Origin: Posidonia oceanica
Taxonomy: Eukaryota > Streptophyta > Magnoliopsida > Alismatales > Posidoniaceae
NCBI GenBank assembly: GCA_037176725.1
Contig: JAZBRS010000026.1
Span: 148,439,501 to 148,503,500, forward strand
Direction: 5' to 3'
DNA length: 64,000 nucleotides
In this document: one piece after another, positions 15,116 to 62,059 of the stretch
How positions within the stretch are numbered: the first letter of the stretch is position 1
Layout: the number at the start of each line of letters is the position of its first letter
Notes under the pieces: generated by a model
Databases searched by the model: none
Seen by the model: the letters and a program-made list of their open reading frames with translations, nothing else
What the model was told of the DNA's origin: nothing
Position numbers and translations under genes: made by a program

Positions 15116-15120
15116 ATAAT

Positions 15121-22457: not shown

Positions 22458-25388
22458 TTGCCAGAGCTTGAGTACCGACCCTCGTTGACGCCCCTGTTGC
22501 GACCTATTCGCGACCATTCCCTTTCCGAGCTATCCGCACTTGCGACGATAGCTCCTCTTAGGAAGCACCGCTTGAACACCCGTCGCAGCCCTGTTCTCAC
22601 GCGCTCTAGGTCAGCGATGGCCCAGTACGTTAGTGAGTCTTCTTTTACTCCTGTCACGGAGGGTGTTTCCGTTTCGGCCCCTCCGGTTGCTCTTTCTGTC
22701 CCTCTTGTTCCCCCTCCGACGCCAGGGTTTCCTCCTCTGACGTCTCTAGGTTCTCAGTACATCCCGGGACAGTAGCAAGCCTCCCTTCCTCCGGATCCGG
22801 TCGCCGAATCTATCTTGACGGCCGTTACTCGCGCTCCGGAGACGCCACTGCCCCCTCCGTCCCAGGGATACGTCGCTTTCGACATCCCTTCCACCGCTGC
22901 TGCGACCTTCTCTGTAGAATCCTTCCCTCCCGGACAGTCTGTGTCCGTGCCACTTGTTTCTCAGCCTCCGCCGGCACTGCACTTCAGCGTCCCCACTGGC
23001 GAGATGCCCGAGGCGCAGTACCAGCATCTGATGGAGCTCGCCCAGAGACTGCAGGGCATGGCTCTATCAGTTCGTCCTTCTTCTGTCTCTGTCGTTCCTA
23101 AGGTTCCTCCGAGGCCAGTTCCTGCATTTCCTGCATCAACCTCTGCACCTCCGCCTCGACCATCGTCGCAACTGCTCACGGTTCCGACGATGGGGGCCCG
23201 TTTACCGCCTCCTGCACAACACTTGGCACAGCATGCTCCACTTCTTTCTGGTGGTCAACCCATTGGACCGGCTGGAGCCCAGTACCTCGCTGGCTCGCTG
23301 TCTGGCACTCCGCCTATACAGCAACTGGTGCTCCGCCATCCTACCCCTGTCCCAGCACAGCATGGCATTTATTCTTCTCCTCTCCCATAAATCCAGCATC
23401 CTGCATACACTCCTGCATACACTATCCCCCAGCACGGATACGCCGGCCATCCCGTTGCTCCACCAGGCGACGCTATGGTAGATCCGGAGGAGCACTTAGG
23501 TGCGACCCATTCGGCGTATGTGCTCACTACCCCTGCTGACCCCTCTCCTCCAGCAGCAATCCAAGACCCCATCAACAACCGGATGGACGTCCTGGAGAAG
23601 GCACTACGACTGGTGCAGGGTACTGAGCACCAGACCTACCAGTTCCGGGACCTCTGTTGCTTTCCAGAGGCGGTACTCCCTCCGAAGTTCAAAATCCCGG
23701 ACTTCGAGAAATACAATGGTAGGGGCTGCCCCGTAGCACACCTGAAGGCGTATTGCGGTGATCTCGCTCAGCTTCAGGCTGACGAGAGGTTGCTGATCCG
23801 CTTGTTCCAGAAGAGTTTGACCGGACCGGCACTCAAGTGGTTCACATCACTCGATATGTCAGCCATCAAGACTTGGAACGACCTCAGTCAGGCGTTCCTG
23901 GAGCAGTACTCCTTCAACCTCGATCTTGTCCCAAAGAGGGCGGACTTGATCGCCATCAAGCAGAACTCTGGCGAGCCGTTCGGGGAGTACGTCGGCCGCT
24001 GGCGCGCCCTTGCCTCTCAGGTTCGAGATAGACCCTCTGACGAGGAATCTATCGAGATCGTCATCAAAGGGGCGCAGCCGTCTCTCGGAGCTCTGCTTAG
24101 CATTCAGCCAGTCACTACTTTTGCGGCACTCATCAGAGCTGGAGCGCGCGTGGAGAGTTCTTTGCGGAGTGGCAACTTCCCGGCTCTCTCTGCGTTCGCT
24201 AAGCAGGCAGCGATCAGCAGCAACAGTGCCAACAGCAGCATCTCCAACAACAACAACAGCGGCAGCAACAACAACCGCCCGAAGAGGAAGGATTCGCCGA
24301 AACCCGCTGTTGCATTCGTCGATTCTCCTGCTGTGCCTGTTCGCTTGCCGTCTCGGCCTACCCCAGCTCAGATGGTGTACGCTCCTGCACCTAGGAATCC
24401 ACACACACCGCACATCACAACCACCGCTAGACTGGTCTATCCTGCTGCACCGGTTCAGCAAGGCCCGTACCCGAGGCAAAGAAGACCACCCACTGAGAGG
24501 CGGAATTTCACCCCATTGGTGGAACCACTCACGGTCATCTTGCCAAAGGTGGCATCGCTCCTGAAGTTCCCGGAGGTTCGTCCGCCGCCAAGCCCTCTGC
24601 CGCATTGGTTTAGGTCGGACCTCTTCTGCAATTTCCATCGAAGCGTCGGGCATTCGACGGACAATTGCTTCTCCCTGCGGAACGCAATTCAGGACCTGAT
24701 CGAATCGGGAACGATTGTGATCGACACGCATGAGGCATCCACTCAAGCACGCACTCATGCATCTGCATCTCCAGCTGTTCCCCCGCATTCTGGCATCGTC
24801 CGCCAACCTCTACCGGAGCACTCTTATCCGGGAGGGGCGGGAACCTCAAGCGTCCACTCTGTCTTTCCTTCTGGGCCTGCTACCTCTGAAGTAGACCCTT
24901 CCGATCTTATCTCTGACATCTCTGAGCCTTTTCCGGTCAGTCTCTATCTTGCGGCAGTTGTCGGCTCCGAGTCGGGAATCCATTTGATCCGACCGCGTGC
25001 CAGGCCGGAGCACCCTCTCGCGCCTCCCACCGTGCTCCCTCAGGCTCAATCCCCTGTGCACCTTCTAGCTAGGGCCCAGCCTAGTTCCCCTATCCACCTT
25101 TTAGGGCGACCTCAGCCACACCTTCTAGGCAGACCTCAACCTGCCCCAGCCTTCCCACCCCAACAACCATACCCCTTAGATAGACCTCAGCTACACCTCC
25201 TAGGCAGACCTCAACCTGCCCCAGCCTTCCCACCACAACAACCATATCCCTTAGAACGACCTCAGTATCCTGTAGGTCCCCCTGTAACCCCTCCTGTGCT
25301 CGCAGCACGTGCTCCAGTCGTCATTGATTTGACCCTGGACACCCATCGCGTCCCTTACAGCTACGCCACAGAAATGTGCGCGAAGTAA
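22458..25388 (+). pseudogene. Ogre-type gag with two in-frame stops
   Basis: One frame is open from 22458 to the TAA at 25386-25388 except for TAG at 22773-22775 and TAA at 23388-23390. The Gag core is at 23640-24170: LPPKFKIPDFEKYNGRGCPV, then LIRLFQKSLTGPALKWF and TWNDLSQAFLEQYSFNLDLV, the pattern of Ogre/Tat capsid proteins. The N-terminal third is Pro/Ser-rich. A Cys/His segment (FCNFHRSVGHSTDNC at about 24625-24669) resembles a divergent zinc knuckle. The C-terminal part has a tandem Pro-rich repeat (HLLGRPQPAPAFPPQQPYPL, two copies at 25115-25250). Both stops can be explained by C-to-T changes in Gln codons. A start near 22617 (MAQYV) is also possible. Confidence 0.88.
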
Positions 25389-26749
25389 CGCGATCGGGGA
25401 GGGTTTATAGGCCCCCAGTGCCGGCAACTAGGCCAACTCACCCTAGACCTGTTATGCCCCCACCCTCAAGCCAACCCATAGCAGATCCAACTCCAGATCA
25501 GCCTGTAGTTAGCCAAATCCCTACCCAGCCTGTAGTAACCCAGCTTCCTTCCACTACCCCTGTAGAACCTGCTAGAATCACCCCTCCAGCTGCTAGGAGA
25601 AGCCAACCCAGAGCAGACCTAACTTCCCAGCTTAAGAAGGTTAAAGCCGACATCTCCATCTGGGATTTGATCCACACTTCTGCCGAACACCGCGAGGCTT
25701 TTCTTTGCGTGTTCCAGGCTGCTCGTGTGTCCCAGTCCATTGAGCCTTCTGCCTTGGAGAGCATGGTTGGGTTAATCGCGGAGCCTCAGGTCATCTCTTT
25801 TACGAGTGATGAGCTGCCTCCGGCGGGGATTAATCACAACCAGCCCCTATTCGTCACAGTGCAGTTCAAAAACTTCCGCATTCTCCTAACACTGGTTGAT
25901 AACAGGTCAGGCCTTAACGTCTGCCCCTTGCGTACAGTAACCAAGCTCGGATTCAAAGCCGAGGATATCACGCCAGCCGTGAAGGGAATGACTGCTTTTG
26001 ACAACACTCACCATGACGCTCTAGGGATTCTGATTATCCCTCTGGCTATCGGTCCGGTCGTCTTCGACGTAGAATTCTATGTCGTCGACTTGAAGCCTAA
26101 CTTCAATCTTCTGCTTGGGCGCCCTTGGCTCCATAAGCATCAGGTCCTTCCTTCGACCCTCCATCGAATGATAAAGTACCGTCATGGCGATGATGTCATT
26201 GTCGTCATGGCGGAGAACTTTGAGAAGGAGCGGATTGAAGCAGTCTCTCCCATGTCTTCACAATCTATCCCATTTGACCCCGAGACTTCTGAAGCCCTCT
26301 ATCGTGTTAACCGGTGCGAGCCAGTTAACTTCGTTCCTGATCTTGAACGTGTCAACTCTTTGGCCGTTCACAGTAACCCTTTTCGAATGGTCGAGAATGT
26401 ATGTCACAGGTGGGGTTACACGAAGGGCACGCTGCTCGGGCGTCACAGCCAAGGGATCGCGGAGCCGATCGTAGCAGTGGAGCGAAGGAAATCGGAAGGC
26501 CTCGGCTACGAACCAAAGCTCAACGAAGATCACTGCTTCCAGCTCAAAGATCGTGAAGCAGCCATTCCCAGAGACCTCACTAACTTCACCAGTGCAGGAA
26601 TTCTGGGATCCACCAACGATCAAGCCACGACGCCGACAGAGGATTGGGTGTGTGTTGAGGACTACTACTCGGATGAGGAGCAGTCTGGCACAACAGAGGC
26701 AGTCCCAACCGGCACAGCAGAAACAGTGGTCAGAGCAGAGGCCCCATAG
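25376..26749 (+). pseudogene. Ogre-type aspartic protease
   Basis: The frame is shifted by -1 relative to gag and open from 25328, overlapping gag's end. It begins with EVTRSGRVYRPP, the usual Ogre gag-to-protease linker, so a one-base indel is more likely than programmed shifting. The active-site loop reads LVDNRSGLNVCPL with Asp codon at 25898-25900: the Gly of the expected D-x-G-S is Arg, which should inactivate the enzyme. The second conserved motif is NLLLGRPWLHKH near 26100. A TAG at 26747-26749 separates it from RT, which follows in the same frame. Confidence 0.85.
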
Positions 26750-29700
26750 TCAGTCTTTTCAGCTCTCCCTCTGGCAGATATAGCAGGCAGCTCAGCAGGC
26801 CCTGTGGCAGAACAAGCAAGTTCCCACTCTTTTGCAGCCACATCTGCATCACAAGTTCAGGCAGCAGTGCAAGAGTTAGAGACACTCCTTCTGACAGAAC
26901 CAGACATGCTACCGGCGGTCACAACCACATCAGTGCCACTGTCCCCATCTCTGGAGGGACCATCTATCAGCTCAGTCAGCAGCGCGGCTCAGCCCGCTCC
27001 CTCGGCATCATCTTCAGGAATGCAGCTGGCACAGTCCGCTTCGCATTCTCCTGACAACCAGCAGCAGCTCTCATGGCAAGACCCTATGGCGTCAGAGGCT
27101 GCACTCTCCCAGTTACGGCCTGATACAAAAGGCCAACTGAGCACTACGCTCTCTGGGCCCCTGAGCCCTCTGAAGAGCACCCCTGCTTACTCTCCAACTG
27201 TGACCCTGGCAGCTTATCCATCTATGGCACCGCTGACTTGTCTACTTAGGCCTTCTACATCGGAGTTGCCGCCGTCGGACGCGCCCGTGAACCAGATCAT
27301 GCAGATTCCAAGGGCAGCGATCCGTCTTGCAGCCGGGCCAGTGCCGCAGGCCCCCGGCGCCTACTACGTCGACTCCCCCTCGGACGAAGAAGAAGGAGTG
27401 GCGATAGAAGCCCAGGTCGATTCCTGGATGTCCGACTTAGAGTTGCTTTATCAAGAACAACTCAAGTCGATAGCAGATGACCTAGCAGATCACCAAGCTG
27501 CAGAAAGGAAAGGGAAAGCCGTAGTCACGGATCCTCCTCTGCAAGAGGACCATGCCTCTATCATGGTCCTGGAAGACTCAGCAGCGCCGGACTCCCTTAG
27601 ACCAGATGAGCTCATCACTCTGCAACCAGAAGGCGGGTCTAGGTGGTTTGTGCAACCCATGCCTCACATGAGCAATATACCGAGCGGCAGTAACCAGATC
27701 TGCCGCCAGTCTGGCATATCCTCCACAAGCACACTAGAAGACCCAGAGGGAGGAGCATCAGCAGTAGATGCTACAGTAACAGAGCAGAATGCCTCAGCAG
27801 TAGAGCAGTCAGCAGCCTCAGCAGCAGAACAGTCAGCAGTATCAACAGTAGAGTCAGCTAAGCCCTCAGCAATATCAACAGAGCACTCAGCAGAGCCAGT
27901 CAGGCCAGAGCAAACAGTAGAAGGAGTTGCTGGGACGGAGGTCGCGCACCGAGGCTACAAGAATACCCGAGTGAGCGTGACCATCCTGAAACATCACCAG
28001 GGCCAAACAGCAGAACACATGCACTCTTTCGACATCACAAGCCCTTCCTTCGAGAAAGAGATCCTCTCAGAACTTATTGCTTATGGAGAAGAGGATGATA
28101 CGGGCATGGATGAGACTGACAAACCTTTGCCCAAGTTCCGGCCCTATGACGACGACCCAGAAGGCCCCAACCTCCATGTCGAAGAAGAAACGGAGGTTGT
28201 CAACATTGGCACAGCTGAGGAAGTCAGAGAGATTTGCATCAGTGCCCAGTTGTCCGCCCAGGCTCGAGCAGAATTCGTCGCATTCCTAAAAGAATATGCG
28301 GATGTCTTCGCCTGGAGTTATGAAGATATGGTCGGCCTTGACATAGAGATAGTGGTGCACAATCTGCCCTTAAATCCAGATGCCAAGCCAGTAAAGCAGA
28401 AATTGAGAAGATGGCGACCGCAGTGGCTGCTCATGATCAAAGAAGAGATAATGAAGCAGCTTGGAGTCAACTTTCTGAAGGTCGTTCTTTACCCTGAATG
28501 GCTGGCAAACATTGTACCTGTGCCCAAGAAAGATGGCCGAATCCGGATCTGTATCGACTACAGGGACCTGAACAAGGCGAGTCCCAAGGACGACTTTCCG
28601 CTGCCCCACATTGACGTCCTAGTCGACAATACAGCAGGCCACAAGATGCTCTCCTTCATGGACGGCTTTTCTGGATACAATCAGATCAAGATGGCAGAAG
28701 AAGACATGGAAAAGACTTCATTCATCACCCCTTGGGGAGTCTTCTGCTACCAAGTCATGCCGTTCGGCCTGAAAAACGCTGGTGCAACCTATCAGAGGGC
28801 CATGACTGCACTATTCCACGACCTCATGCACCAAGAAGTGGAGGTCTATGTAGACGATATGATTGCCAAAACCAAAGAGCCTGAAAATCATCTTGCCTGT
28901 CTCAGAAAGCTCTATGACCGTCTACGGAAGTACAAACTGCGCCTGAATCCCAAGAAGTGCGTATTCGGGGTGTCTTCTGGCAAATTGCTTGGCTACATTG
29001 TTAGCCAGAGGGGGATTGAGGTGGACCCGTTGAAAGCACAAGCCATCGTGGACATGCCACCCCCTAGAACTGAAAAGGAAGTCAGAAGTCTGCTTGGGCG
29101 TTTACAATATATCAGTCGCTTCATTGCACAGCTTACGCCCATCTACGAACCCATATTCAAGCTCTTAAGGAAGAATGCGCAGATTCACTGGAGCGAGGAG
29201 TGTCAGGCTGCATTTGCCAAGATCAAGCAGCTGTTGATCAAGCCTCCTGTCCTGGTCCCGCCTACGCCGGGGAGACCTTTGCTTCTCTACCTTTCTACCA
29301 TGCAGCATTCCATGGGCGCCGTCTTGGGCCAACATGACGAATCTGGTAGGAAGGAGCGCGCCATCTACTACCTGAGCAAGAAGTTTAATGAATGTGAAGC
29401 CAGGTACACAACACTAGAAAAGACTTGCTTGTCCCTTGTCTGGGCCGCACAGAAGCTGAGGCACTACATGATGGCATACCCAGTGCAGCTCTTATGCCGG
29501 CATGATCCCATCAAATTCCTCTTCCAGAAGCCGGCCATGGTGGGCAGATGTGCTAAGTGGCAGGTGTTATTGTCTCAGTACGACATCACCTTTGTCACAC
29601 AGAAATCCATGAAGGGTCAAGCAATGGCAGACCATCTTGCCGACCTTCCTCTGCCTGAATACCAACCCCTCCAGACGCAGTTTCCTGATGAAGACATTCT

Positions 29701-31474
29701 CTTTGCAATGGAGGGCTCTGAGCAGAAAGATCCTGAAGAAGCAGAGGAATGGCAGCTCTACTTTGACGGTGCGGTCAACAAGAAGGGCCGAGGCGTAGGT
29801 GCAGTGCTGACCACGCCCCAAGGACAGATGACTCCTTTCGCGAGGAAGCTGACTTTCACCTGCACAAACAACGAAGCAGAATACGAAGCATGCATCTTGG
29901 GGTTGAAAGTCGCCCTCGAGCATGAGGCGCAGAAGCTGCATGTGCACGGTGATGCCATGCTGGTAATTTCTCAAGTGAACGGCGAATGGAAGACAAAAGA
30001 TCCCAAGCTTGTGCCGTATCACGAACACCTGCTGAGGCTGATGAAAGAATTCAAGAGCATCCGCTTCACATACCTGAACAGAGCGAAGAACGCGTATGCA
30101 GACGCACTAGCAACTCTAGCATCCTGGCTCACTATATCAGAAGACAGCACTGTGGATGTATCAGTCACTCGCATTGAGCAGCCTGCATACTGCATGAGCA
30201 TAGAAGAAGCGGATCCCGCAGAGGGGCAGCCCTGGTATCAAGACATAAAATCTTTCCTGGAGTCTGGTAACTTTCCTCCTGATACCACGGCAGCAGACAA
30301 GAGAACTTTGGCGCGTCTGGCGTCAAAGTATGTGTTAGGGGCCGGGCAGCTGTACAGAAGGTCTTACAATCAGATGCTACTGCGCTGCCTGAACAAATCG
30401 GAGGCGGATACGCTGATGCTTCAAGTGCATGCGGGGACTTGTGGCCCGCACATGAACGGCGTCCTCCTGGCCAAGAAGATCATGCTTCAAGGATATTTCT
30501 GGCAAACCATGGAAGCAGACTGCTGCCGGTTCGTGCGTAGATGCCACAACTGTCAGATCCATGGTAACTTCATCAAGGCCCCTCCACATCAGTTGCACAA
30601 TATGTCTTCGCCATGGCCTTTCTCCACCTGGGGGATCGATGTCATCGACGCCATCCACCCCGTTGCTTCAAATGGTCATCGTTACATTCTGGTAGCGATC
30701 GATTACTTTACCAAGTGGGTGGAAGCGGCTTCTTACAGGACAGTCACCGCTGTGGCAACAGAAAAGTTTATCAGAAACAATATCGTTGCCCGGTATGGGG
30801 TCCCGTACTCTGTCATCTCGGATAATGGCTCAAACTTTATTGCCAAAAGGATCGAAGAATACCTGCAAAGTCTCAAGATCAAGCACCATCGATCCTCGCC
30901 TTATCGGCCTCAGATGAACGGAGCAGTGGAATCTGCAAACAAGAACATTGTCAAGATCCTGAAGAAAATGGCAGAAACCCACAAGGATTGGCACGACAAG
31001 CTCCCGTACGCACTCTGGGCGTACAGGACATCAATCCGGACCTCTACAGGAGCCACCCCGTACTCTCTGGTGTACGGCATGGAAGCAGTGTTACCTGTTG
31101 AAGTGGAGATCCCCTCTCTGCGGATCCTGCGGGAAGCTGAGTTGGAAGAAGCAGAATGGGTCGAAGACCGCTGCATCCAACTGAACTTAATTGATGAGCG
31201 CAGATTGCAAGCCATGCACAACGCTCACTGCTATCAGAAGCGGATGGCCAGAGCATTCTTAAAGAAGGTCCAGCCTAGAAACTTTCGGCCAGGGGACCTC
31301 GTCTTGCGCGCCATTCACTTGCCTGACGGTCGAGGGAAATTCTGACCCAATTGGCGCGGCCCCTTTGTGGTCAAATGGATCTTCTCGGGAGGCGCAGTAA
31401 CTCTTGAAGATATGGACCAGATTGAACAGTCTGAGGCCGTCAACCTCTGCTATCTGAAGAAGTACTATCAGTAG
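26750..31474 (+). pseudogene. Ogre-type pol: RT, RNase H, second RNase H, integrase
   Basis: Open from 26750 to a TGA at 31343-31345, after which the same frame continues to a TAG at 31472-31474. Residues are counted from 26804. A low-complexity Ser/Ala/Gln linker (1-420) is followed by RT with YVDD at 682-685. The first RNase H (about 820-960) lacks the first catalytic Asp (LYLSTMQH in place of a DAS-type motif). A second, archaeal-type RNase H keeps its Asp/Glu residues (YFDGAVNKKG with Asp 988, NNEAEYEA, VHGDAMLVI, NAYADALA). Integrase has the HHCC region at about 1207-1250 and D1279, D1340, E1376. The TGA cuts the GPF-type C-terminal module (RGPFVVKW follows it) and fits a CGA-to-TGA change. 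Confidence 0.93.
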
Positions 31475-32003
31475 CCGAAAGCGGCCCCGTTGCAGATGCC
31501 CTTCTCCCACTTGCATTTTCACTTTCGCCTTCTTGCTTCAACTCTGTTTCAAATCATCATCGTCATCCTTCCAACTCTCGCCCCCTTTCTTTTCAAACCA
31601 TCATCGTCATTCTCTCAAGCATCGCATCTTTCGCCCGGTGATGACAACCGGAAGTGCTTGCCTGCTCTGGAAAGAGTCACCCTGCCTCACCCGGCACTAC
31701 TTAGATGTCTTAGCAAGTGAGGGAGCCATCACCAACGAGGACGGGCAAACTGTCTAATCTCGTAAGGACATACACCTCTGAGGGAGAAAAATGTTAGGAT
31801 GTGAGTCTGAAAAAGGTGAGAGTAGACATCTAGGCTTGGGCACGTCTAAGGAACAGAAGGCGAAGACACAGGCCGACCCTAGAGATAGGGGTGTGCAGTC
31901 TAACCCTGTTCCTTCTACCCATCACACAGCAGGCCCAAAGCCTAAATCTATTACAATTCAAGCTCCCTCCTTTTGCCACCAAAATGGGGATAGCAGAAGC
32001 CTG

Positions 32004-32035
<32 letters not shown>

Positions 32036-32940
32036 GAATCAAGCAAAAAAAAAGAGATAGAACAAAAGACCCGGAAAAAAAAGGAGAGGAAAAAGCAAGC
32101 AAAAAACAAAAAAAAAAAAGAGAAGAAAAGGGCAAGTTGCAGCCCGAAAATACAGGCACCGTTATCCCCCATACCATCACTAGAGATCCCCAGGGAGTTA
32201 AGCTTGAAAAGGGTCTACCACATCCCTCCAAGAGCAACACTTACCCTTCTTCTAGCTAGGGGCAGGAAAAGACTGCATACCTATGAGGGAGGAGTCAATC
32301 AAAAAGTAAGAGCTGAAAGAATAGGTGTAGGTCCTGAGAGTGCGGCAAGTAGCCTGTCCTCACCACACCACCACCCGTATAATGCCAACAACCCGTTCCA
32401 GAGCGCCACCAACAAGCCAAGAGTCTAGGTAGGGCCCAGTGAGTTAGGGACCACTCCCTTCCTTTGAAGCAGGCACCAAAGCGCTCCGTATGCTGAGGGC
32501 ACTCAAGCATACTCATATATCCAAGCATACTCATCCCTTCAAACATACCACTCATCTTCATAAGCATATCACTTGCATCCCGCATACATGCATCCCCATC
32601 TATCCTTCCTTTCCTGCCAATCTCTCCGCTCTGCAACACGCTCAGGCCCTGAGGCAGTACTTCTCCCTAGCAGGGTGCGTCGACGACACTCGAGCTGCAC
32701 TGGTCCAGATCTCCTACCAGCCCTCGCCCCCGTGTCCGCAAGACCGTAACAGAATCCCCCTGCTTATCAGTGCTTAACTGCTATGTTCCGTTATCAACTG
32801 CTAAATGCATATGGAACTACGTTTTCAGTTTCAGTTTCTGCTTGTTGCCAATGATTACATACCTGCGAGATCTGACTGTTTATTGATAGCAGGTACCTTC
32901 AAGCCTTGCAGTAATCAGCCTGTCTTCTGCAATCAGCGCA
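31475..32940 (+). other. Spacer between pol and the extra ORF
   Basis: No coding sequence supported. It contains a long purine tract (31984-32135) with runs of A, and a segment at 32490-32600 repeating CATACTCAT-type strings. Ogre elements are known to be spliced, so intron signals could lie here, but I cannot identify them. Confidence 0.6.
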
Positions 32941-34119
32941 ATGGGCTTCACTACTCTGCTAACTCCTGCACATTGCTCGGAAACCCTGCGAGAATGGATC
33001 GGCAGGCTCACTCAAGTAGACTGTGAAAAGCTGCGCCTGTGGGGCATACCAACTAAGCTGCTGAAGGCCGCTGATGTGGAGGTCAGCCGCCACCTTCTGT
33101 GTGCCGCCGCAAGATTCTGGAAGCCGGCGCACCACGTCTTCCGCTTTGGCAAGACTGAACTGACACCTACACTGGAAGAGGTGCGTCGGATCTGCGGCTT
33201 TTCAAAGATCATGGGGCCGCCAGTCTTTATGAGGCGCAATGGGTATCTCCAGGTCCTAAGCCAGCTGACTGGGCTATCCACTCGAACCTGCCAACAGAAG
33301 CTAATCTGCACCAGTGGACCAGAGCCTATGCTTCGCCTTGCACACTTCAATGATATCATGAACAAGCGTGCTGACCTCGGAGATGAGCTGTGGCTCCGAG
33401 GATTTGTCATCCGCTTTCTGGGCGAGCTGATCTTCACTCATGGCCGACTGACAGTGGCCATCGAGGTTGCAGAGATTGCGCTAGCTGTGGTGACCCAGCA
33501 CATAGACCTGGCACCAGTTGTCTTGGCAGAGACCTATCGCAGGCTGGACCGCATTTCTCATCGCTGCCGCCACTTCCACGGTTGCGGAGCACTCATACAA
33601 GTCTGGCTGACTGCGCACTTAGAGATGGACTTCCTGCGCCCTCAAGTACACGCCTTCGAAGCATACTGCAGCAGCGCCCGTACCAGAGCAGACAAGAGCG
33701 TCAAAGAAGAGTACGAGAGGCTGTCAGCACTGACTGACGACGCTGTGACCTGGCGTATCGTCCCCTCTGCAGTCGAGCCATTCGCTGTCTTTTTCAGCGT
33801 GTGCGACACGCGGCTGGTCATTCTTCCAGGCTTCACAGCAGGCGTAGAGTACCACCCAATCAGGGTCATGCGCCAGTTCGGCTTCCAGCAGGGCGCCTTC
33901 ATCGACAGTACAGCGCCCGAGCTTCTACAGACTTATCCTCTCAGCACCACTGCCCCAACCAAGAAGCTTGCTAGTCTGATGCAGCATGGGGTCCAATCCA
34001 CAGACATTGCAGCTGTGAGAGGTGTAGGATGCACCCCTGAATATGAAGCTGAAGTCCGACAGCTCTGGCCTATTACTGAAATTCCGCCAGGCGGCCCTTT
34101 GTTCCCCGACTCTCGGTAG
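32941..34119 (+). CDS. Extra ORF of the Ogre-like element (plant mobile domain-like)
   Basis: 392 codons, no interruption, ATG at 32941 and TAG at 34117-34119. The N-terminal half has the pattern LRLWGIP, then FWKPAHHVFRFGKTELTPTL followed by EEVRRICGFS. This W...H.F.F...ELTPTLEE signature is shared by the plant mobile domain and related domains found in plant transposable elements. I see no signal peptide, membrane segment or catalytic motif. Tat-lineage elements often carry extra ORFs 5' or 3' of gag-pol whose function is unknown. This is the only internal ORF without a stop while gag, protease and pol are all broken. An unrelated captured host gene cannot be excluded. Confidence 0.75.
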   Translation: MGFTTLLTPAHCSETLREWIGRLTQVDCEKLRLWGIPTKLLKAADVEVSRHLLCAAARFWKPAHHVFRFGKTELTPTLEEVRRICGFSKIMGPPVFMRRNGYLQVLSQLTGLSTRTCQQKLICTSGPEPMLRLAHFNDIMNKRADLGDELWLRGFVIRFLGELIFTHGRLTVAIEVAEIALAVVTQHIDLAPVVLAETYRRLDRISHRCRHFHGCGALIQVWLTAHLEMDFLRPQVHAFEAYCSSARTRADKSVKEEYERLSALTDDAVTWRIVPSAVEPFAVFFSVCDTRLVILPGFTAGVEYHPIRVMRQFGFQQGAFIDSTAPELLQTYPLSTTAPTKKLASLMQHGVQSTDIAAVRGVGCTPEYEAEVRQLWPITEIPPGGPLFPDSR

Positions 34120-34419
34120 TCGAAGAAGGCCCGATTTGACTAGGCCCTTGTGCAACCATCATATGGTCTTCTTTCAGACTATGCTGTACATTTCTGGCCT
34201 GCCACAGGCATTGTACCCACCAAGCTTTATCAATGAAAAACTGTTTCTGCTTTCTGCTTGCACATCAAGATTCTTTGCTGTATTGCATATCATTATCATC
34301 ACCATCTTGGGCCCTCTAACCAGACTTGCAGGCATCACAACGCAGCGAAGTCCTCAGCACCCAATCCGGAGTCCAGAACATCTGCGGACCCGCGTCGTCA
34401 AGCTACGCCATCCGGCGTC

Positions 34420-35060
34420 CCCAGCTGGTTGCCCCCAGCTGAAAGTCCCTTGCGGGCTGGCAACCCAAACTGCTCGGCGAAAGGTCCGTCAACCTGTCAC
34501 TCTCCTCAGCTGATCATCCCCAGCTGAGTCCCTTGCGGGCTAGCACCCCAAACTGCTCGGCGATGGGTTCGTCAACCTATCATCCATCCACTCACTCACC
34601 TATCTTTGCATCCTGATGCCAGGGGCGCTTCGACCATCCCCTGGTATCATCCTGATACCAGGGGCATCTTTTGACTGCCCTGCGATATCATCCCCAGCTG
34701 ATCATCCTCAGCTGAATTCCCTTGCGGGCTGGCACCCCAAAATGCTCGGCGGAAGGTCCGTCAACCTGTCACTCTTCTCGGCTGGTCATCCCCAGCTGAG
34801 TCCCCAGTTGGCCGTCCCCAGCTGGATCACTCTTCTGCGGGCTGGCACCCCAAACTGCTCGGCGGAAGGTCCGTCAACCTGTCACTCTTCTCGGTCGGTC
34901 ATCCCCAGCTGAGTCCCCAGTTGGTCGTCCCCAGCTGGATCACTGTCTTCTGCGGGATGGCACCCCAAACTGCTCGGCGAAAGGTCCGTCAACCTGACAT
35001 CCTCCTCAGCTGATCACCCTCAGCTGAGCCCCTTGCGGGCTGGTACCCCAAACTACTCGT
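34420..35060 (+). repeat. Tandem repeat array 1 with self-complementary CAGCTG motifs
   Basis: Six imperfect units begin TTGCGGGCTGGCACCCC or a near variant at about 34450, 34533, 34722, 34836, 34950 and 35033. They contain AACTGCTCGGCGAAAGGTCC and GTCAACCTGTCAC. Between units lie hairpin-forming pairs such as CAGCTGG...CCAGCTG, CTCAGCTG...CAGCTGAG and CCAGTTGG...CCAGCTGG. Tandem repeats in the 3' untranslated part of Tat/Ogre elements are known and vary strongly between families. Confidence 0.82.
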
Positions 35061-35174
35061 CTGACAAGCACGACATTCTTATCATCACTCTCTGCTTTCG
35101 ATGCCAAGGACGCGCTGGCCAACCCCTGGTGTCATCCCGACACCAGGGGCATCTTTTGATCGCCCCTTGGTATC
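34615..35174 (+). repeat. Four long hairpins with GATACCAGGGG-type stems
   Basis: Hairpins pair 34615-34625 with 34638-34648, 34654-34664 with 34678-34689, 35100-35109 with 35124-35133, and 35139-35149 with 35163-35174. Stems run GATGCCAGGGG/CCCCTGGTATC and variants with G-T pairs or small bulges. The first two and last two occur back to back, separated by the family-1 repeats. Confidence 0.78.
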
Positions 35175-35225
35175 ATTCTTTCCCTCTTTCCCCTACGACG
35201 TTCCTGGCGTCATGGGATGATTTCT

Positions 35226-35580
35226 TCTCATCATTCCCTCATCCCCTCTTTGCCGGCCGATAAGTCCGATATCTTATCATTCTTATCATTCCCTCATCCC
35301 CTCTTTGCCGGCCGATAAGTCCGATATCTTATCAACCAACCCTTCTCATCATGATCTCATCCCCCTCTTTAGCTTAGCTTCTCATCATGATCTCATCCCC
35401 CTCTTTAGCTTAGCTTCTCATCATGATCTCGTCCCCTCTTATCAACAATCAATCACTCGTGCTAGGCTGATATCCGAAACTAGCAATCTATCAATCACTC
35501 GTGCTAGGCTGATATCCGAAACTATCAATCTATCAATCACTCGTGCTAGGCTGATATCCGAAACTATCTCAGGCTGATAT
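35226..35580 (+). repeat. Tandem repeat arrays 2 and 3
   Basis: A 69-bp unit with CCGGCCGATAAGTCCGATAT and CTTATC occurs twice (GATAAG at about 35250 and 35319; GATAA...TTATC forms a hairpin). A 49-bp unit with CATCATGATCTCATCCCC occurs three times (35340-35430). A unit of about 49 bp with CACTCGTGCTAGGCTGATAT occurs three times (35450-35575) and holds GATA...TATC hairpins. Confidence 0.8.
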
Positions 35581-35616
35581 TCCTAAACTATCTTCTGGTC
35601 GATCCATGGTCGGCCC

Positions 35617-36450
35617 GCAGTTGTGTTATACGGCTGACATCCAGTAACTGTCCCTCGTAATTGCACTTTTCCAGTTGATAGGTCTGTAAACTATCCGCCG
35701 GTTGACAGGACCGTAAACTGTCGCTCCAGTTGGTAGGACTGTAAACTACCGCGTGCAATTACGTTATACGGCTGACATCCAGTAACTGTCCCTTGCAATT
35801 GCGGTTTCCAGTTGATAGGTCTGTAAACTATCCTCCAGTTGATAGGTCTGTAAACTATCCGCCGGTTGACAGGACCGTAAACTGTCGTTAGGCTGATATT
35901 CCTAAACTATCACCAGCAATTGCATTATACGGCTGATATCCAGTAACTATCCCTCATCATTGCACGTTTCCAGTTGATAGGTCTGTAAACTATCCGCCGG
36001 TTGACAGGACCGTAAACTGTCGCTCCAGTTGATAGGTCTGTAAACTATCCACCAGTTGGTAGGACTGTAAACTACCACGCGCAATGATGTTATACGGCTG
36101 ACATCCAGTAACTGTCCCTCGCAATGCCGTTTCCAGTTGATAGGACTGTAAACTATCCTCCAGTTGATAGGTCTGTAAACTATCCGCCGGTTGACAGGAC
36201 CGTAAACTGTCGCTCCAGATGATAGACTGTAAACTATCCGGCATTGCGTTATACGGCTGATATCCAGTAACTATCACTCATGGTTTGTGGTTTCCGGTTG
36301 ACAGGACCGTAAACTGTCGCTCCAGTTGATAGGTCTGTAAACTATCCACCGGTTGACAGGACCGTAAACTGTCGTTAGGCTGATACTCCTAAACTATCAC
36401 CCACAACCATGTTATACGGCTGATATCCAGTAACTATCACTCACAACTGC
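35617..36450 (+). repeat. Branched fold: six unique arm pairs, six 32-nt connectors, 25 hairpins
   Basis: Outer arms are 35617-35624 and 36443-36450 (8 of 8 paired). Five branches lie inside: 35657-35666/35753-35762 (10 of 10), 35795-35802/35916-35923 (8, self-complementary), 35956-35963/36081-36088 (8 of 8), 36121-36128/36240-36247 (8 of 8), 36280-36290/36401-36410 (10 pairs, one bulged T). Between consecutive arms lies a connector GTTATACGGCTGAYATCCAG plus TAACTRTCCCTC, always exactly 32 nt, at 35625, 35763, 35924, 36089, 36248 and 36411. Connector stems are GACA/TGTC three times and GATA/TATC three times. Branches hold 19 small hairpins with stems GATAG/CTATC, GACAG/CTGTC, GGTAG/CTACC or GATA/TATC around a loop with GTAAA or CTAAA. 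No coding potential. Function unknown. Confidence 0.88.
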
Positions 36451-36676
36451 TCCGGTTGACAGGACCGTAAACTGTCACTCCCGGTTGACAGGACCGTAAA
36501 CTATCCGGACGATAAGCCCGTCACCTTATCATTTTTTTTCTCCTTTTCGGCGTGACCTTGTCCCAGGAAGACAAAGTCACGCACCCCCTTTCTGCGATAG
36601 GAGAGTTGGCCTCTCTCCCCTCGCACCCTTTCCTTTTCTGCTGGCTTGTTCCCCAGACGGGGACAAGCTGCACCCT
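36451..36676 (+). repeat. Further hairpins before the polypurine tract
   Basis: GACAG/CTGTC at 36457-36475 is followed by one imperfect unit at 36487-36505 (GACAG facing CTATC, one mismatch) and GATAA/TTATC at 36511-36529. Then come two longer hairpins: 36550-36562 with 36570-36582 (13 positions, one mismatch, 7-nt loop), and 36644-36654 with 36659-36668 (10 pairs, one bulge, 4-nt loop). 36677-37008 is TGCAT-rich DNA with no recognised feature. Confidence 0.75.
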
Positions 36677-37008: not shown

Positions 37009-37092
37009 AAATGGGGTGTCTTGTCAACCCTGAGCAGCGGTCTCGGTCCCCTTGACCTCGCTCAGGGAGGGGCATCTGTTGACACCCCATTT
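37009..37092 (+). promoter_or_regulatory. Polypurine tract inside an extended hairpin at the LTR edge
   Basis: The polypurine tract AGGGAGGGG (37064-37072), which would prime plus-strand DNA synthesis, ends four bases before the 3' LTR. Around it, 37009-37020 pairs perfectly with 37081-37092 (12 bp, the latter inside the LTR), and 37028-37035 pairs perfectly with 37060-37067 (8 bp). The tract and LTR junction therefore lie partly in the inner stem and partly in an internal loop. Confidence 0.8.
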
Positions 37093-40000
37093 CGACAAGG
37101 CTGAATCGGTAGATCTCTCTGGCGGCTAGGAAAAAACCCAAAATCGCACATTTCTCTTCATCCTTCTTCCCAAATCAAAACTCCAGCTCAAACCTCAAAC
37201 CAAACCTAGAACCACACCCATTTTCCAACCCCAAAACCTTACCCTGAAACCATCCCAAAACCTTACCCTGAAACCATCCAAAACCCAAGCCAAAACCAAA
37301 CCCTAACCCTCCTCTCTACCCTTCAAAACCAGCCAACTTGACCTAAGCCTTTACCCCTCTTCCCGAGCTCAAAACTTGACCAAAATCCATAGGAAAATCC
37401 ACCAACACCCACTCAACAAACCTACTCTAGAACCTAGAAATTTCTAAACCTAACCCATTCCCAAAAACCCTAGAAAACCTAGGTGAATTTCCCCTTTTTC
37501 TACACCTTGAAACCCCTCCAAAACCTTCTTAAAATCAAACCAAAACGTTAGACCGAATACCTTAAGCCCTAGACTACCCACTCACCAATTTTCACCCCAT
37601 TCCAAGACCTTTAAGACCTCCATTCACCCAGATTATCCTTTTCTCTCTCCAGGATTATCTTTTTCTCTCTCCTCTCTCTCTCCTAATTATCATCTCCCTT
37701 TTCATCCCCTTCTTGCCCTTTCCCTGGCCTGGCTGTGGGCCCCCTTTGTGCTTCTATCCCTTCTCTATCTTATTCCTATTTTTATTTTATTTTTAGCATT
37801 TTTCCTGAATTTTAAAAAATCATTTCCCTCCAACTCATCTCTTTCCCTTTTATTTCTCCCTTTTTCCATTTTCTTCCTCCTTCTCTTTTCCTTTTCTTTC
37901 TTTTGCAAAAACCCATAAAAACCCCTAAAAATCTGTAAAATTCCAAAACATAAAAGAGACAAACCAGAACTCTAAGAAAAACAATTAAAAAACACTAAGC
38001 AAGCAATTAAAAACTTAAACTTAACTAAATCAAGCTAAAAAGAAAATCAAGCATGCAAACTAAAAAATGCAAAACAAACCAAAAGAAAATACCAAAAAAT
38101 CTAGGAAAAAACTAAAATAAAACCAAAACCTACCAAAAGTAAAAACCCCATCAAAAGAATTAAAAAACAAACCCTAAAAAGAAGAATTAAAAAACAAACA
38201 CTAAAACAAGTAATTAAAGAAGCAAAAGACTTAAACCTAATAAACATAAGAAAAACAACATAAAAACTTAATGAAAAAAGAAAAGAAAAACACATCTGAA
38301 AGACTTAAAAACACCCCATCAAACCAGTAAAATCTAATTAAAAACTCCAAGAAAAATCAACAAACAAAAATCAAAGCATAATTTAGAAGACTTAAGAAAG
38401 AAAAACCCTAAAAAGACTAAGACTTAAAAATCCAAAACCAACCCTGATTAATACGAAAATAAATCCTAAAAAATCCTAATCAATATTCTAAGTGTCCAAC
38501 AAGGGAAGCACAATTTTTAAAACAATTTAAAAAGATTTAACAAACACTTAATCAAATGGAAAACAAATTAAGGACAAAACAAAACCATAAAACCCTAATC
38601 AAGCCCAAAACACACTAATTAACCTAAAAACAGTCACTAAAAATCTAATTAAAATCCTAACTCACAACACAACTTTTCTAGTATTTTTACTTATTTTTAA
38701 TTTATTTTTTCTTCTAAATTTTATTTCCTTTCTCTTCCTTTCTTCTTCTTCCCTCCTTTCTTTCTCACTTCTCATTCCTCTCTTCCTCCCCTTCATTTTC
38801 TTTTCTTTTTTTTACTGTGCTCAAGGCCCAGCCCATAGCCGGCCAACTCTTTCTTCTTCCCTCCTTCTCTTCTTCTTCTTCCATTCTTCTCCTCCTCTCA
38901 CAGCCAAAAACGACAGCAGCCTCCCTCATTGGTTTTCTTTTTTTTCAAACCTCCCTGACACCACCTTGACCTCCCACCATCACCCACGACCCACGACCAC
39001 CATCACCACCCTACCCTGTGGCCTGAAACCAAGGACAGCAACCCATCCTTTCTCTTTTTGACTGTTGGAAACCAGCAAGTTTGGAGGGATCAAAACTTGG
39101 GATTTTGGAATCAGAAAGGGATTCGGCCGACACACCTGCGAAGAGGAAGTCACCAGCTCTCTCACCCTTCTTCCAGAACCCAAAAAGACCCCCAATCCTT
39201 GCCGGAATCCTTCCCCGAAGTAGCCAGCACCCAAGCAAGCTCAGAGCGACCTTCTTCTTTGCAAACCCACCACCACGAGCATCCAAAAATTCCCAAACTC
39301 CACCATCGTACTCACCAAGTTCCCACCTTCACAATCCACCCAATATCTCACTCTGAAACCTCCCACAGTCACCGCATTCCACTACAAACACTTGGGTCCT
39401 CTTTTTTGCCAAAATCTTCAAACACCCATATCTTCCTCTACACTCAGTGAAATCCACTTCTGTTTCCTCCCACGCACTCCCCGAACAACCACCTAGCCGC
39501 CCGTGCCTTCGCCTCGCCTTGGAGCGCCGCACATCGCCGTATCCACCTCGGCCATCACAGTTGAGCTCCGGTCGAACCAGATCTTGCTCCAGGCCATAGA
39601 AGACCCTTCTGGAACCTCCGTCATCCTCCTCGGGCCTCCGGCAACGTCCCCCGAGCTCCCCAACGCAGCAGCCGCCGCCCTCCGCCGTCCCCACTCCTCT
39701 CCGGCCGGCCGAAAGCCACCCAGGTGGGTGGGCTCTTCCGGCGCGCGTAACGGTCGAAGAAAGTCTCCCCCGGATTCCCCTCGTCTCCCTCTTGCTCCTC
39801 GGCTTTTCCCCGAGGCGTTTCGTCGCCTGTGCCGCCCGCAAGCTCTCGCCGGAGTTCCCATCTTCTCCGGCACCGGTCGTCGGCGCTGCAAGGACAGCAG
39901 CTTCTCTACGCACGCCCGCCGCCACCGACGCACCGCCGCATCCCTCCTCGCCTCCGTCGCACCCCGCCGGTTCCCCCCCGCTCTCCGCCGCCCCGCGTCG

Positions 40001-42884
40001 CCCCTCCTCCGCGGGTCCAGAGCGTCGTCGGCGGACCTCCGGCCGTCTCCCCGCTGTAAGTCCTCTGTTCTTCTTTTCTTTTTTATTTTCAGCAACTTTA
40101 GCTTAATTTACCTGCATTGCATTCATGCCTTATTAAGTTTTCAATATTGCTATTAGGTCCTGATGAGTTAAGTTTTATGTTATATTGAAGTTAAAATCTT
40201 ATTAAATTGCTTTAAATGTTTCTGGTTTTTAGTATTTGCATGATAATCCATTTACTGTACTGACCAGTTGTAGAAAATTATGTTTTAGCCCTTCTACTCT
40301 TAATTTTTGCATCTGAATCCTGCAGTAGATTATTTAATTTAAATGCTGTAAGTTTGCCTTATTGTATTGCGTTCTGGGTCCTTCTTAGTTTCTGTTTTTG
40401 CATCTTAGTCCAATGCACTGTAGAACTTAGGGTTTATTTTCGTATTTTGCATGCTGCATTGCACATTTGCCCTTCTGATTTTTAATTTTTGCATCTAGGT
40501 CCATTTAAATGCACAGTAGCCATCTTGCATGCATTTTTGCATATTGCATTGCATTTTCAACCCTGTTTTTTTAAAAAATTGCACATCAGTCCATAAACCT
40601 TGATTTCAGAGCACATTTTGCATCTAAAATTGCATACTTGACCCTTGCATGATTTAAAAATGACATATAGGTCCTTGCATCCTTTTAAAGTCATGTAAAA
40701 AGACTGTTTTGCCCCTAAAAATGCATCTTAGCTCCCATGCTTGCAAAATTGCACGTAGACCCTCCACCTGCATTCCCAGACTCCCCAGGACCCTGTTTTC
40801 TGGAAAAATTGCATTTTAGCCCCTGATGTTTTTAAAAATTGCATTCTGCTTGCCATTTGCTTTCAAAACTTCCTCTGATGCATACCTACTTTTAAAAAGC
40901 TATGTTCTGAAGCCTATTCTTTGCAAAACCACCCTCTGTCACCTCCTGTTCTCAGAACCCCTGCCTGTAAGCCCCATCCTTTTCAAAAATTTGCATTTAA
41001 ACCCCCTCTCTTTTCAAAAATAGCTTTTGAATCTCTACTTTTCTAAAAATTCCCTTCTAGTCTTTTCTTGCTTCTTGCATGCATTGGCATCCATCTAGTC
41101 TTGCATCTGGCATTCCTTTGCACACACCAGAGCCCCCTTAGCTCCCATTCACCTGGGAGGACCCTTTTGCACACCCCTAGGACCTCCTGAACACTTAGAT
41201 CTGTTCTTCTCTCCTGTTCTGGCCCTTCCGCCCTGAAGCTGCGATATCTTCCAATCCGACCGTCGGATCTTCTCAAGCAAGCTGCCCAGGCGACCGCAGC
41301 GAGGCGCTCTTCAGCATGGACCAAGCGGATTTCAGATCAGACTCCAGGATTTCCAGGTATGCCCTCCTGAACCCTTGCATTGCATTCATTCGCATGCCAT
41401 TTGCATAGTTTGCCTCGTTTTCGCTTTCGGTCTCTTTGAGCATGTAGAATAGGACCTCCCCTTCTTGTCTATCAATTCCAATCCTCGTTTCGCGTACTCT
41501 TGAGTGTTTTGTGTCGTGTTTTCCTTGGATTCACCACTTAATGCGACTTTTTTCCCCATTTTCCACGATCCGATCGCATCGCGAGCTTTGGGCAGCGTGC
41601 GAGACACACCGTGGAGCGGTTTAGTGGGAAACGGTCACAAAGAGGCGATAATCCCTCCGTTTGCTCACTCTCTCCCTTTGTAGGTCTTTACACCTACTCC
41701 GTGTGGCCCCGAACAGCGTCTGTTCTCACACACGCGCTGTCTTACTTCTCTTTGGCTTCTTTTGATCTTTTTCTTTGCATTAGCATTCGCATAGCTTTTC
41801 CGAGGTTTTGTTTCGCTGTTTTGGCACCGTTTTGCGTGCCTGCTTTGCTTTTGCGCCGTTTTGCGCGCTCGTCTTGTTTTGGCACCATTTCGCGTGCTCG
41901 TAATCGTCTTTTTGCACCGTTTTGTGTGCCATTCTGTTTTGTTGTCTCGTTTTGCGTGCCGCCTTGTTTTTTTTGCTTGTTTCGCGTGCTCGTAATCGTC
42001 TTTTTGCACCGTTTTGTGTGCCATTCTGTTTTGTTGTCTCGTTTTGCGTGCCGCCTTGTTTTTTTTGCTTGTTTTGCGTGCCGATTTCGTTCTTTTGCAC
42101 CGTTTTGCGTGCCATTCTGTTTTGTTGTCTCGTTTTGCGTGCTGCCTTGCTTTTCGCTTGTTTTGCGCACTAGCTTCGTCCTTTTGCACCGTTTTGTGTA
42201 CGTTCTTGTTTCTCGCCTCGTTTTGCGTGTTTTACGCCGTTTTCTCTTGCATGTCGATCGCATTGCATGACTTTGTCGTTGTTTTGCTTTCTCGTCTGCA
42301 TTTGCATATAGGGCTGTGATGCTTACTGCTTGGAGTTCTCATGAGCTAGGTTTCGCCTGGTTCGGAACACGGACAGCGTAGCTGAGCATTTAGAGAGCAC
42401 GTTTACTTCCCTGCCTTACATTTTCCCACTTAGAGCACTCCTTGAGCATTCATTTAGGCATTCATAGGCACATAGGCATTCAATCCTGCATTTCCCTGTG
42501 CATGCGAGCGTAAGCCTAGAAAGACCGATTCTCGGGCGTGTCGGGGGTGCCTAACACCTTCCCCGCGCGTAACAGGAGTCCTTGCCCTGTCTTCTGGCCC
42601 GCAATGACCATATTGCCCCTATCCTAGGCTAGAGTCATCTCATTTGCATTCATTTGCATTTGTTTTCCTTTGCATTGCTTTGCTTTGCATTTCTTTCTTG
42701 GTTTTGCGTGTTAATTCACGCATTTCCCTCGATTTTCCTTGTCTCCCGTTAATAGACATGGTGGCGACTCTGATTTGTCTTATCTTTCCCTTTTCTCCTT
42801 GATTTAAAGTGTTTTCGAGTTGAGCCTCTTCCTCGGATCCAATCGCCGCTAATAGTGAGCCTGATTCCGATCGGGATTACTACA
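37077..42884 (+). repeat. 3' LTR of the Ogre-like element
   Basis: 5808 bp, nearly identical to 15566-21284. By eye I see roughly 35-45 substitutions, most of them C/T or G/A, a 2-bp loss in a CT repeat near 37680, and one extra 92-bp minisatellite unit. The count is not from an alignment. Divergence below 1 percent means a recent insertion. Confidence 0.95.
41888..42071 (+). repeat. 92-bp unit duplicated only in the 3' LTR
   Basis: The unit TTTCGCGTGCTCGTAATCGT and onward, to GCTTG, occurs at 41888-41979 and again at 41980-42071. The 5' LTR has only one copy (from about 20379). It lies within a longer GT-rich minisatellite built on CGTTTTGCGTGCC strings (41820-42240; 20290-20640 in the other LTR). 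Confidence 0.85.
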
Positions 42885-59280: not shown

Positions 59281-59321
59281 TTTGATTGTAGGTGCTATCC
59301 TTGGCTGAGGCCTTATAATAC

Positions 59322-61935: not shown

Positions 61936-62059
61936 AACATGCCGTTGCATACGTCGAATCTCCAGCTGAGCCTGCCATTGTAAAGAGTCAGCTAGACTCT
62001 ACTCTGCTAAATCATGCACAAAGTCTTGCACACACTGCACGCATTGCCACCATCGAGCC

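What the first reader, a model, noticed from the sequence alone, without database searches (positions are those of the whole stretch)
35617..36450. Large branched fold with unique covarying arms in the 3' region of the Ogre-like element
Seen directly: an outer arm pair encloses five branches, each closed by its own arm pair. The arm sequences differ from branch to branch yet always complement their own partner (8 of 8, 10 of 10, 8 of 8, 8 of 8, 8 of 8, and 10 with one bulge). Six connectors, one between each neighbouring pair of arms, are all exactly 32 nt. Simple tandem duplication would give identical arms. Different but matched arms imply compensatory change and hence selection on an RNA or single-stranded DNA structure. 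Tandem repeats in the 3' region of Tat/Ogre elements are known, but I know of no such closed multi-branch design. Possible roles (inference): genome packaging or dimerisation, transcript stability, nuclear retention, or aiding reverse transcription.
Basis: seen in the sequence. Interest (0 to 1): 0.95.

Follow-up and report, generated by a model that had tools for sequence, protein, structure and literature searches.

The report
Pseudoknot arrays in plant retrotransposon tail
The untranslated tail of a young plant retrotransposon is built from about 45 small repeats laid out like folded RNA knots, 25 of them in a closed five-branched domain, and two distant relatives carry similar repeats, so the repeats may be a working RNA part rather than junk.

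Summary
Six arm pairs close five branches and an outer stem; the observed pairing is the best of 720, and the arms have mean pair probability 0.85-1.00. More important is what they enclose: the 27-nt repeats, the connectors and the 42-, 55- and 113-nt repeats upstream are about 45 copies of one layout, S1-L1-S2-L2-S1'-L3(A-rich)-S2', an H-type pseudoknot. S2 shows compensatory change. S1 exceeds its null in the 3' untranslated regions, more on the sense strand, and not in control regions. Two other Tat-type elements (gag 36% and 54% identical) carry different arrays of this layout. The closed form is known so far only in the focal family, where 22 of 30 rows chosen by a neighbouring stretch keep its exact spacing. 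Against: folding energy is only modestly better than shuffled (z -2.4), 6 of 56 rows have an uncompensated arm mismatch, 14 of 45 units pair incompletely, and two covariation measures do not exceed shuffles. Best reading: a cis-acting RNA domain resembling tobamovirus upstream pseudoknots; its function (stability, translation, packaging) is inferred.

The parts
15566..21284 (+). 5' LTR of the focal element; TSD AATAG at 15561-15565 and 42885-42889
   Evidence: matches the 3' LTR at 98.9% over 5067 columns and 96.6% over a further block of 981; ends read
23475..34119 (+). coding part: gag, G-patch ORF, pol with RT, two RNase H domains and integrase, then a plant-mobile-domain ORF
   Evidence: Pfam
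34454..35057 (+). upstream array of H (GGG CT GGCA . CCC AAAC TGCT type) and N (CGG C GATRGG T YCG TCAA CCTATC type) units: 6 H, 5 N; 4 of 5 N have S2 mismatches in this register
35254..35592 (+). upstream units: 2 G (S2 GATAAG/CTTATC, in the 55-nt repeats), 3 M (42-nt repeats), 1 F; numbers differ between copies. The 36-nt repeats at 35342-35440 hold no such unit
35617..35625 (+). outer closing arm, 5' side; pairs with 36442-36450
36442..36450 (+). outer closing arm, 3' side
35656..35763 (+). branch 1, arms CGTAATTGCAC/GTGCAATTACG, encloses 3 pseudoknot-layout units (A B C)
35794..35924 (+). branch 2, arms TGCAATTGC/GCAATTGCA, encloses 4 units (A A B F)
35955..36089 (+). branch 3, arms CATCATTGC(ACG)/(CGC)GCAATGATG, encloses 4 units (A B A C)
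36120..36248 (+). branch 4, arms CGCAATGCCG/CGGCATTGCG, encloses 4 units (A A B A)
36279..36411 (+). branch 5, arms CATGGTTTGTGG/CCACAACCATG with one bulge, encloses 4 units (B A B F); of other length in 6 of 56 aligned rows
35626..35655 (+). connector 1 of six (others start at 35764, 35925, 36090, 36249, 36412; 30-nt core); S2 GACA/TGTC in three, GATA/TATC in three
36453..36530 (+). three units downstream of the closed domain (B, B*, G)
   Evidence: the mismatched C at 36489 is T in 27 of 27 other copies compared
37029..37076 (+). hairpin CCTGAGC..GCTCAGG and purine-rich tract just before the 3' LTR (PPT)
   Evidence: read; similar layout in L060 1320-1367
37077..42884 (+). 3' LTR

Best explanation
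The 3' untranslated region of this Tat/Ogre-type retrotransposon is an RNA-level domain made of tandem H-type pseudoknots: S1 (3-5 bp), a 1-2 nt L1, S2 (4-6 bp), an A-rich 3-5 nt L3. In the focal family 19 of about 45 units are packed in groups of 3-4 into five branches, each closed by its own matched arm pair, the branches separated by six near-identical connectors (each itself of this layout) and the whole closed by an outer stem. Shown by sequence: the layout, compensatory change in S2, sense-strand bias, recurrence in two distant elements, recovery of the arms by folding. Inferred: that the pseudoknots form in vivo and that the domain acts in cis on the genomic RNA. Most likely mode: a multivalent platform toward the RNA 3' end that protects the genomic RNA and supports its use (stability/translation, as reported for tobamovirus upstream pseudoknots and the Evade ENE; about 0.35), next Gag binding and packaging (about 0.3), nuclear export (about 0.15).
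For: Arms: best of 720 matchings, mean pair probability 0.85-1.00, 0 of 200 arm-shuffled controls as stable. Layout: 41 descriptor hits (28 distinct sequences) in the 3'UTR sense strand, 13.9/kb, against 0-2.0/kb on the same strand of LTR, gag-pol, PMD ORF and both flanks; on the opposite strand 4.7/kb in the 3'UTR and 0.5-3.4/kb in those regions. S1 given S2: z 4.8 and 6.9 in two parts of the 3'UTR, -0.5 in gag-pol, 0.6 in the LTR, 0.2 downstream; sense/antisense z 9.2/4.8 focal, 5.2/2.7 outer and 6.4/0.1 inner element, -0.7/1.2 in an LTR control. Covariation: S2 columns 7-20 AU 13/GC 13 and 8-19 UA 14/CG 9 of 27 distinct rows over three elements, covariation score reached by 0 of 500 shuffles; GATAGG/CCTATC alternating with GATAAG/CTTATC in the 64-nt array, 1 of 500; 27-nt units 4 of 500. 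S1 differs between unit families yet stays paired (CAG/CTG, CGG/CCG, AGG/CCT, GGG/CCC). Branch 5 has other contents in 6 of 56 rows, with the closing arms unchanged in 5 of these 6. Two elements with gag but no pol match in the fetched stretch keep the layout.
Against: Whole-domain energy z only -2.4; permuting right arms costs little (74 of 300 at least as stable). The two covariation measures that the tool calls least prone to relatedness, pairs with two-sided change and number of pair types, do not exceed shuffles (277 and 500 of 500; 322 and 405; 25 and 500). 14 of 45 focal units pair incompletely: M (3) and K (6) have 2 of 3 S1 pairs unless K bulges an A, one M also has an S2 mismatch, N (4 of 5) S2 mismatches, B* one. 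In the three-element set S1 is 86% paired with no two-sided change. Antisense z is also raised in the focal and outer elements (4.8, 2.7). 6 of 56 rows have an uncompensated C.C in arm B3 and single changes occur in the other arms. Of 30 rows chosen by the stretch downstream, 8 do not keep the exact spacing. Substitutions among copies are not clearly rarer in stems than in loops (arms 0.060, S1 0.079, S2 0.097, short loops 0.093 per site). Units are duplicates, so counts are not independent. No probing or expression data; no tool here folds pseudoknots.
Confidence: 0.72

Rival explanations
1. Only simple hairpins (S2) plus arms are selected; S1 is a by-product of what the ancestral repeat looked like and no pseudoknot forms.
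For: S2 carries most of the covariation; S1 has no two-sided change within the three-element set; M and K units have incomplete S1.
Against: S1 exceeds its own null in the 3'UTRs and not in the control regions tested; S1 differs in sequence between unit families and stays paired; one S1 pair changes on both sides within the 27-nt units and two within the 64-nt array, in few rows; the short L1 and A-rich L3 lie where H-type geometry (recalled) asks for them in the sense RNA.
Confidence: 0.2
2. Neutral minisatellites: repeats made by slippage or template switching in reverse transcription, with matched arms produced by templated (quasi-palindrome) correction rather than selection.
For: Tandem repeats in Tat 3'UTRs are known to be hypervariable (PMC7004042, passages); upstream unit numbers vary between copies, and 8 of 30 rows chosen without regard to the domain depart from the exact spacing.
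Against: Templated correction would have to match arms about 86-816 nt apart and two interleaved stems at once; 22 of 30 rows chosen by the stretch downstream (and 28 of 28 chosen by the domain itself, which is biased) keep the exact spacing; the layout recurs in elements with gag 36-54% identical.
Confidence: 0.13
3. A DNA-level feature (protein-binding palindromes, cruciforms, recombination sites).
For: Hairpins are symmetric in DNA; antisense z for the whole domain is -3.3 and S1-given-S2 is raised on the antisense strand too in the focal element (4.8).
Against: Sense exceeds antisense in all three elements tested: z 9.2/4.8, 5.2/2.7, 6.4/0.1. The reverse complement would need a 4-nt L1 and a 1-2 nt L3 (by reading the units).
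Confidence: 0.06

Closest known systems
Upstream pseudoknot domain (UPD) of tobamoviruses and other Virgaviridae
   Same: Consecutive H-type pseudoknots in the 3'UTR of an RNA that works in plant cells; [quoted passage not shown]).
   Different: TMV has 3 units next to a tRNA-like structure; here about 45 units, no tRNA-like match in Rfam, grouped into closed branches, in an LTR retrotransposon. No sequence relation is claimed.
Tandem repeats in the 3'UTR of Tat/Ogre/Retand elements
   Same: Same place (between coding part and 3' LTR), same kind of short variable repeats (PMC7004042 and PMC11963269, passages; PMC3305785, parts 1-2 of 3, which gives a 26-bp repeat A in soybean Gmr9/GmOgre).
   Different: In the passages read they are treated as DNA repeats and satellite precursors; the words hairpin and secondary structure do not occur in the two main texts searched. 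Whether their monomers fit the layout was not tested.
ENE of the Arabidopsis Copia93/Evade element
   Same: 3'UTR RNA structure of a plant LTR retrotransposon that raises RNA stability and mobility (PMC12501189, passages).
   Different: ENE is a stem with U-rich internal loops that clasp the poly(A) tail; no such U tracts in 35600-36530 (read).
Ty1 5' pseudoknot
   Same: Pseudoknot in LTR-retrotransposon genomic RNA, with a Gag C-terminal-region binding site (PMC4974528, passages).
   Different: Single, at the 5' end, long-range; a role in packaging could not be shown there.

Membership tests
Tat lineage of Ty3/gypsy LTR retrotransposons | second RNase H domain beside the RT-linked one (criterion recalled) | tested here: met
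   RVT_3 at 987-1105 after RT_RNaseH at 822-926 of pol
Tat lineage of Ty3/gypsy LTR retrotransposons | tandem repeats between coding part and 3' LTR (common, not universal) | tested here: met
   TRF rows between 34609 and 36507
Ogre proper | ORF upstream of gag and intron in gag-pol (recalled; also in the Gmr9 figure legend) | not tested
   a 191-aa ORF at 22815-23390 has no Pfam match; splicing not examined
Virgaviridae-type UPD | run of H-type pseudoknots in a 3'UTR | tested here: inconclusive
   layout and S2 covariation met, S1 weaker; formation not probed
Virgaviridae-type UPD | adjacent tRNA-like structure | tested here: not met
   no Rfam match at gathering level in the window; in 35200-36600 five matches, all below gathering, best E 1.4
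Virgaviridae-type UPD | eEF1A binding | not testable with these tools
   needs a binding assay
ENE | paired U-rich internal loops | tested here: not met
   no T run of 5 or more in 35600-36530 (read); no Rfam match in the window. The rest of the 3'UTR was not examined for it

The most novel reading that the evidence does not exclude
The hypervariable tandem repeats of Tat-type 3'UTRs in general are tandem pseudoknot arrays, a multivalent cis-acting RNA module kept through turnover of its sequence; the plant satellites said to arise from them descend from RNA pseudoknot units; and one family has enclosed its array in a five-branched, arm-addressed domain for which I found no parallel.
Probability: 0.35. 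Interest if true: 0.92.

Novelty: new variant of a known kind. Interest (0 to 1): 0.8.

Why it matters
Tandem repeats in Tat/Ogre 3'UTRs are common and reported to seed satellites, and the soybean paper states that the function of its repeats is not known. A repeated, covarying pseudoknot layout gives them a concrete testable role as RNA, would explain why units keep a layout while sequence changes, and offers a natural array of about 45 related pseudoknots for structural work.

Tried and rejected
Rfam at gathering level on the window and permissive on 35200-36600 (best E 1.4): nothing convincing. IMG/VR scans for the connector and for RT relatives: no relatives. One protein search with gag: 6 hits, source names for three (Vicia, Malus, Mucuna), no DNA context. 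Global folding energy as main evidence: rejected as weak. Substitution rates in stems against loops of young copies: inconclusive (46 of 56 other loci usable; L3 had 0 of 76 sites changed, but the L3 stretches are TAAA or AAAC and so hold almost no C or G, and a C-to-T bias alone could explain it). One search compared copies without turning minus-strand loci; redone, and with more copies. The fuzzy connector search missed mutated connectors; redone. One N row had a wrong start; N units were recounted in the register homologous to the other elements (in the register, three of the five rows pair fully). Two rows of the alignment (H3, M1) had wrong coordinates; that alignment was not counted. For A2 I dropped 4 of 35 anchor hits as chance (window 35904 and 36431, L060 7800 and 8140); two H units (34726, 34954) did not fit the anchor pattern and are not in it. 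E unit 36216, one base shorter, was left out of A4. I did not search the two neighbouring elements for closing arms. Wider sampling of sister families failed: the genome-search machine answered only.

Full report
The element. The window carries a Ty3/gypsy LTR retrotransposon with both ends, 15566-42884 (27.3 kb), with LTRs of 5.7 and 5.8 kb that match at 98.9% over 5067 columns and 96.6% over a further 981-column block, target-site duplication AATAG, a PBS-like GTGGCGACTCCG after the 5' LTR, gag, a G-patch ORF, pol with two RNase H domains, and a plant-mobile-domain ORF. The two RNase H domains place it in the Tat lineage (recalled criterion). The 3'UTR runs from about 34.5 kb to 37076.

The observation. 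The six arm pairs are there. Each left arm matched to its own partner gives the best of all 720 arrangements. RNAfold puts all six into the ensemble at mean probability 0.85-1.00, and none of 200 versions with letter-shuffled right arms is as stable. But the energy of the whole domain is only z -2.4 against dinucleotide shuffles, and permuting the right arms among branches leaves 74 of 300 versions at least as stable, presumably because the arms then pair elsewhere. Arm sequences are related between branches and differ by matched changes (for instance TAATTGCAC/GTGCAATTA in branch 1 and TCATTGCGC/GCGCAATGA in branch 3 of 44 of 56 rows).

What the arms enclose. The 27-nt repeats have two interleaved stems: for example CGGT-T-GACAG-G-ACCG-TAAA-CTGTC, where CGGT pairs with ACCG and GACAG with CTGTC. 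CAG/CTG with GATAG/CTATC, CAGT/ACTG with GGTAG/CTACC and TTAGG/CCTAA with TGATA/TATCA follow the same plan. The connectors, the 42-nt, 55-nt and 113-nt repeats fit it too; the 36-nt repeats do not. There are 45 units: 19 inside branches, 6 connectors, 17 upstream, 3 downstream. Of these 31 form every pair of both stems (G.U allowed) and 14 do not (K 6, M 3, N 4, B* 1). This is the layout of an H-type pseudoknot with a short L1 and an A-rich L3 (geometry recalled).

Is it chance? A fixed descriptor finds 41 such places (28 distinct) in the 3'UTR sense strand (13.9/kb) and 14 (4.7/kb) on the antisense strand. On the sense strand the 5' LTR has 1.40/kb, gag-pol 1.78, the PMD ORF 0, the flanks 2.00 and 1.24; on the other strand these regions have 0.52, 3.18, 3.39, 2.77 and 1.38. 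Given an S2 hairpin, an S1 partner is in excess in the 3'UTR, z 4.8 and 6.9 in its two parts, against -0.5, 0.6 and 0.2 in gag-pol, LTR and downstream flank. Related units make these z values too optimistic.

Copies in the same genome. The genome (2.96 Gb, 80 contigs) holds many copies; each search scored only its best 40 candidates of 963 and 2697. I read 58 rows (57 loci, the window twice): 28 picked by similarity to the domain and 30 by the stretch downstream. 56 of 58 show six connectors. The spacing 138-161-165-159-163 is kept in 28 of 28 of the first set and 22 of 30 of the second; of the other 8, six have a branch 5 of other length and two lack connectors. In five of those six the branch-5 units can be read as A-type, and five of the six keep both closing arms; L048 has one changed arm base. 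Upstream M and G units vary in number. The B3 arm is a perfect 12 bp in 44 of 56 rows; the window copy has one mismatch. Against the reading, 6 of 56 rows have a C.C mismatch in that arm, and single changes occur in the other arms. In 27 other copies compared, 26 have GATAG/CTATC where the window has GGTAG/CTACC (a matched double change, possibly by conversion from the unit at 36053), and 27 of 27 have the T that pairs where the window has a mismatched C at 36489.

Distant relatives. Right of the window lie two elements, one apparently inserted in the other, with gag 36% and 54% identical to the focal gag and no match to its pol or PMD ORF in the stretch fetched. Their 3' regions carry other arrays of the layout: 21 repeats of 64 nt, each holding CGG-TC-GATAGG-T-CCG-AAA-CCTATC and CGG-TC-GATAAG-T-CCG-AAA-CTTATC types, and GGG-CT-G(AT|GC|AC|GT)A-n-CCC-TAAC-T(AT|GC|GT|AC)Y types. 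On 31 units of three elements (27 distinct) 91.5% of cells pair (shuffled 85.1%), with AU/GC and UA/CG exchange in the two middle S2 pairs and 0 of 500 shuffles reaching the covariation score; sliding the partner drops pairing to 31-53%. The 42 units of the 64-nt array (30 distinct) give 94.8% (shuffled 92.2%) and 1 of 500; 18 focal units, 5 distinct, 97.5% and 4 of 500. The numbers of two-sided pairs and of pair types do not exceed shuffles in these three counts (277 and 500, 322 and 405, 25 and 500 of 500), so the covariation claim rests on cell counts and scores, which relatedness can inflate, and on the matched combinations themselves. S1 within the 31-unit set is 86% paired without two-sided change; S1 evidence comes from differences between unit families and from the S1-given-S2 test: sense z 5.2 and 6.4, antisense 2.7 and 0.1, LTR control -0.7 and 1.2. 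I did not search these two arrays for closing arms.

How it may work. The strand bias, the location between the last ORF and the PPT, and presence in elements without a detected pol speak for a cis-acting function of the sense RNA. [quoted passage not shown] the Evade ENE, a 3'UTR structure in a plant LTR retrotransposon, raises RNA stability and mobility (PMC12501189, passages). The Ty1 pseudoknot holds a Gag binding site, but a packaging role could not be shown (PMC4974528, passages). I favour a multivalent stability/translation platform, with Gag binding close behind. The closed branches may keep 3-4 pseudoknots each apart from their near-identical neighbours, so that S1 and S2 strands do not mispair between units (inference).

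Novelty. Nine paper searches showed, in the rows listed (titles and starts of abstracts only), no paper on pseudoknot arrays in retrotransposon 3'UTRs; the library lacks most subscription journals, among them the 2009 Gene paper on hypervariable 3'UTRs, which I have not seen. The main texts of the Retand and nanopore papers do not use the words hairpin or secondary structure, and the soybean minisatellite paper says the function is not known.

Noticed in passing
37009-37092: Just upstream of the PPT lie AAATGGGGTGTC, complementary to bases near the start of the 3' LTR (GACACCCCATTT), and a CCTGAGC..GCTCAGG hairpin; the neighbouring inner element has a similar arrangement (about L060 1301-1380).
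   Followed up: partly
25376-26749: ORF between gag and pol with a G-patch domain; it overlaps the end of gag by 13 bases in another frame and ends 54 bases before the pol ORF, in the same frame.
   Followed up: no
32941-34119: Sense ORF with plant mobile domain / DUF7745 downstream of pol.
   Followed up: no
59321-64000 and L059-L060: Two apparently nested Tat-type elements with gag but no pol match in the fetched stretch; probably non-autonomous.
   Followed up: partly
35727-35750: The window copy and one of 27 others carry a GGTAG/CTACC unit where 26 carry GATAG/CTATC; three linked changes suggest conversion between units.
   Followed up: partly
165-2786 and 7662-10166; 13955-15122 inverted: Another repeat pair, 89-90% identical, and a related inverted copy; RT-like matches on the minus strand between 3421 and 5510.
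   Followed up: no
34387-35365: The 3'UTR also holds longer plain hairpins (CAGCTG-type and GATACCAGGGG-type); three 150-nt windows between 34616 and 35365 have local folding z below -3.
   Followed up: no
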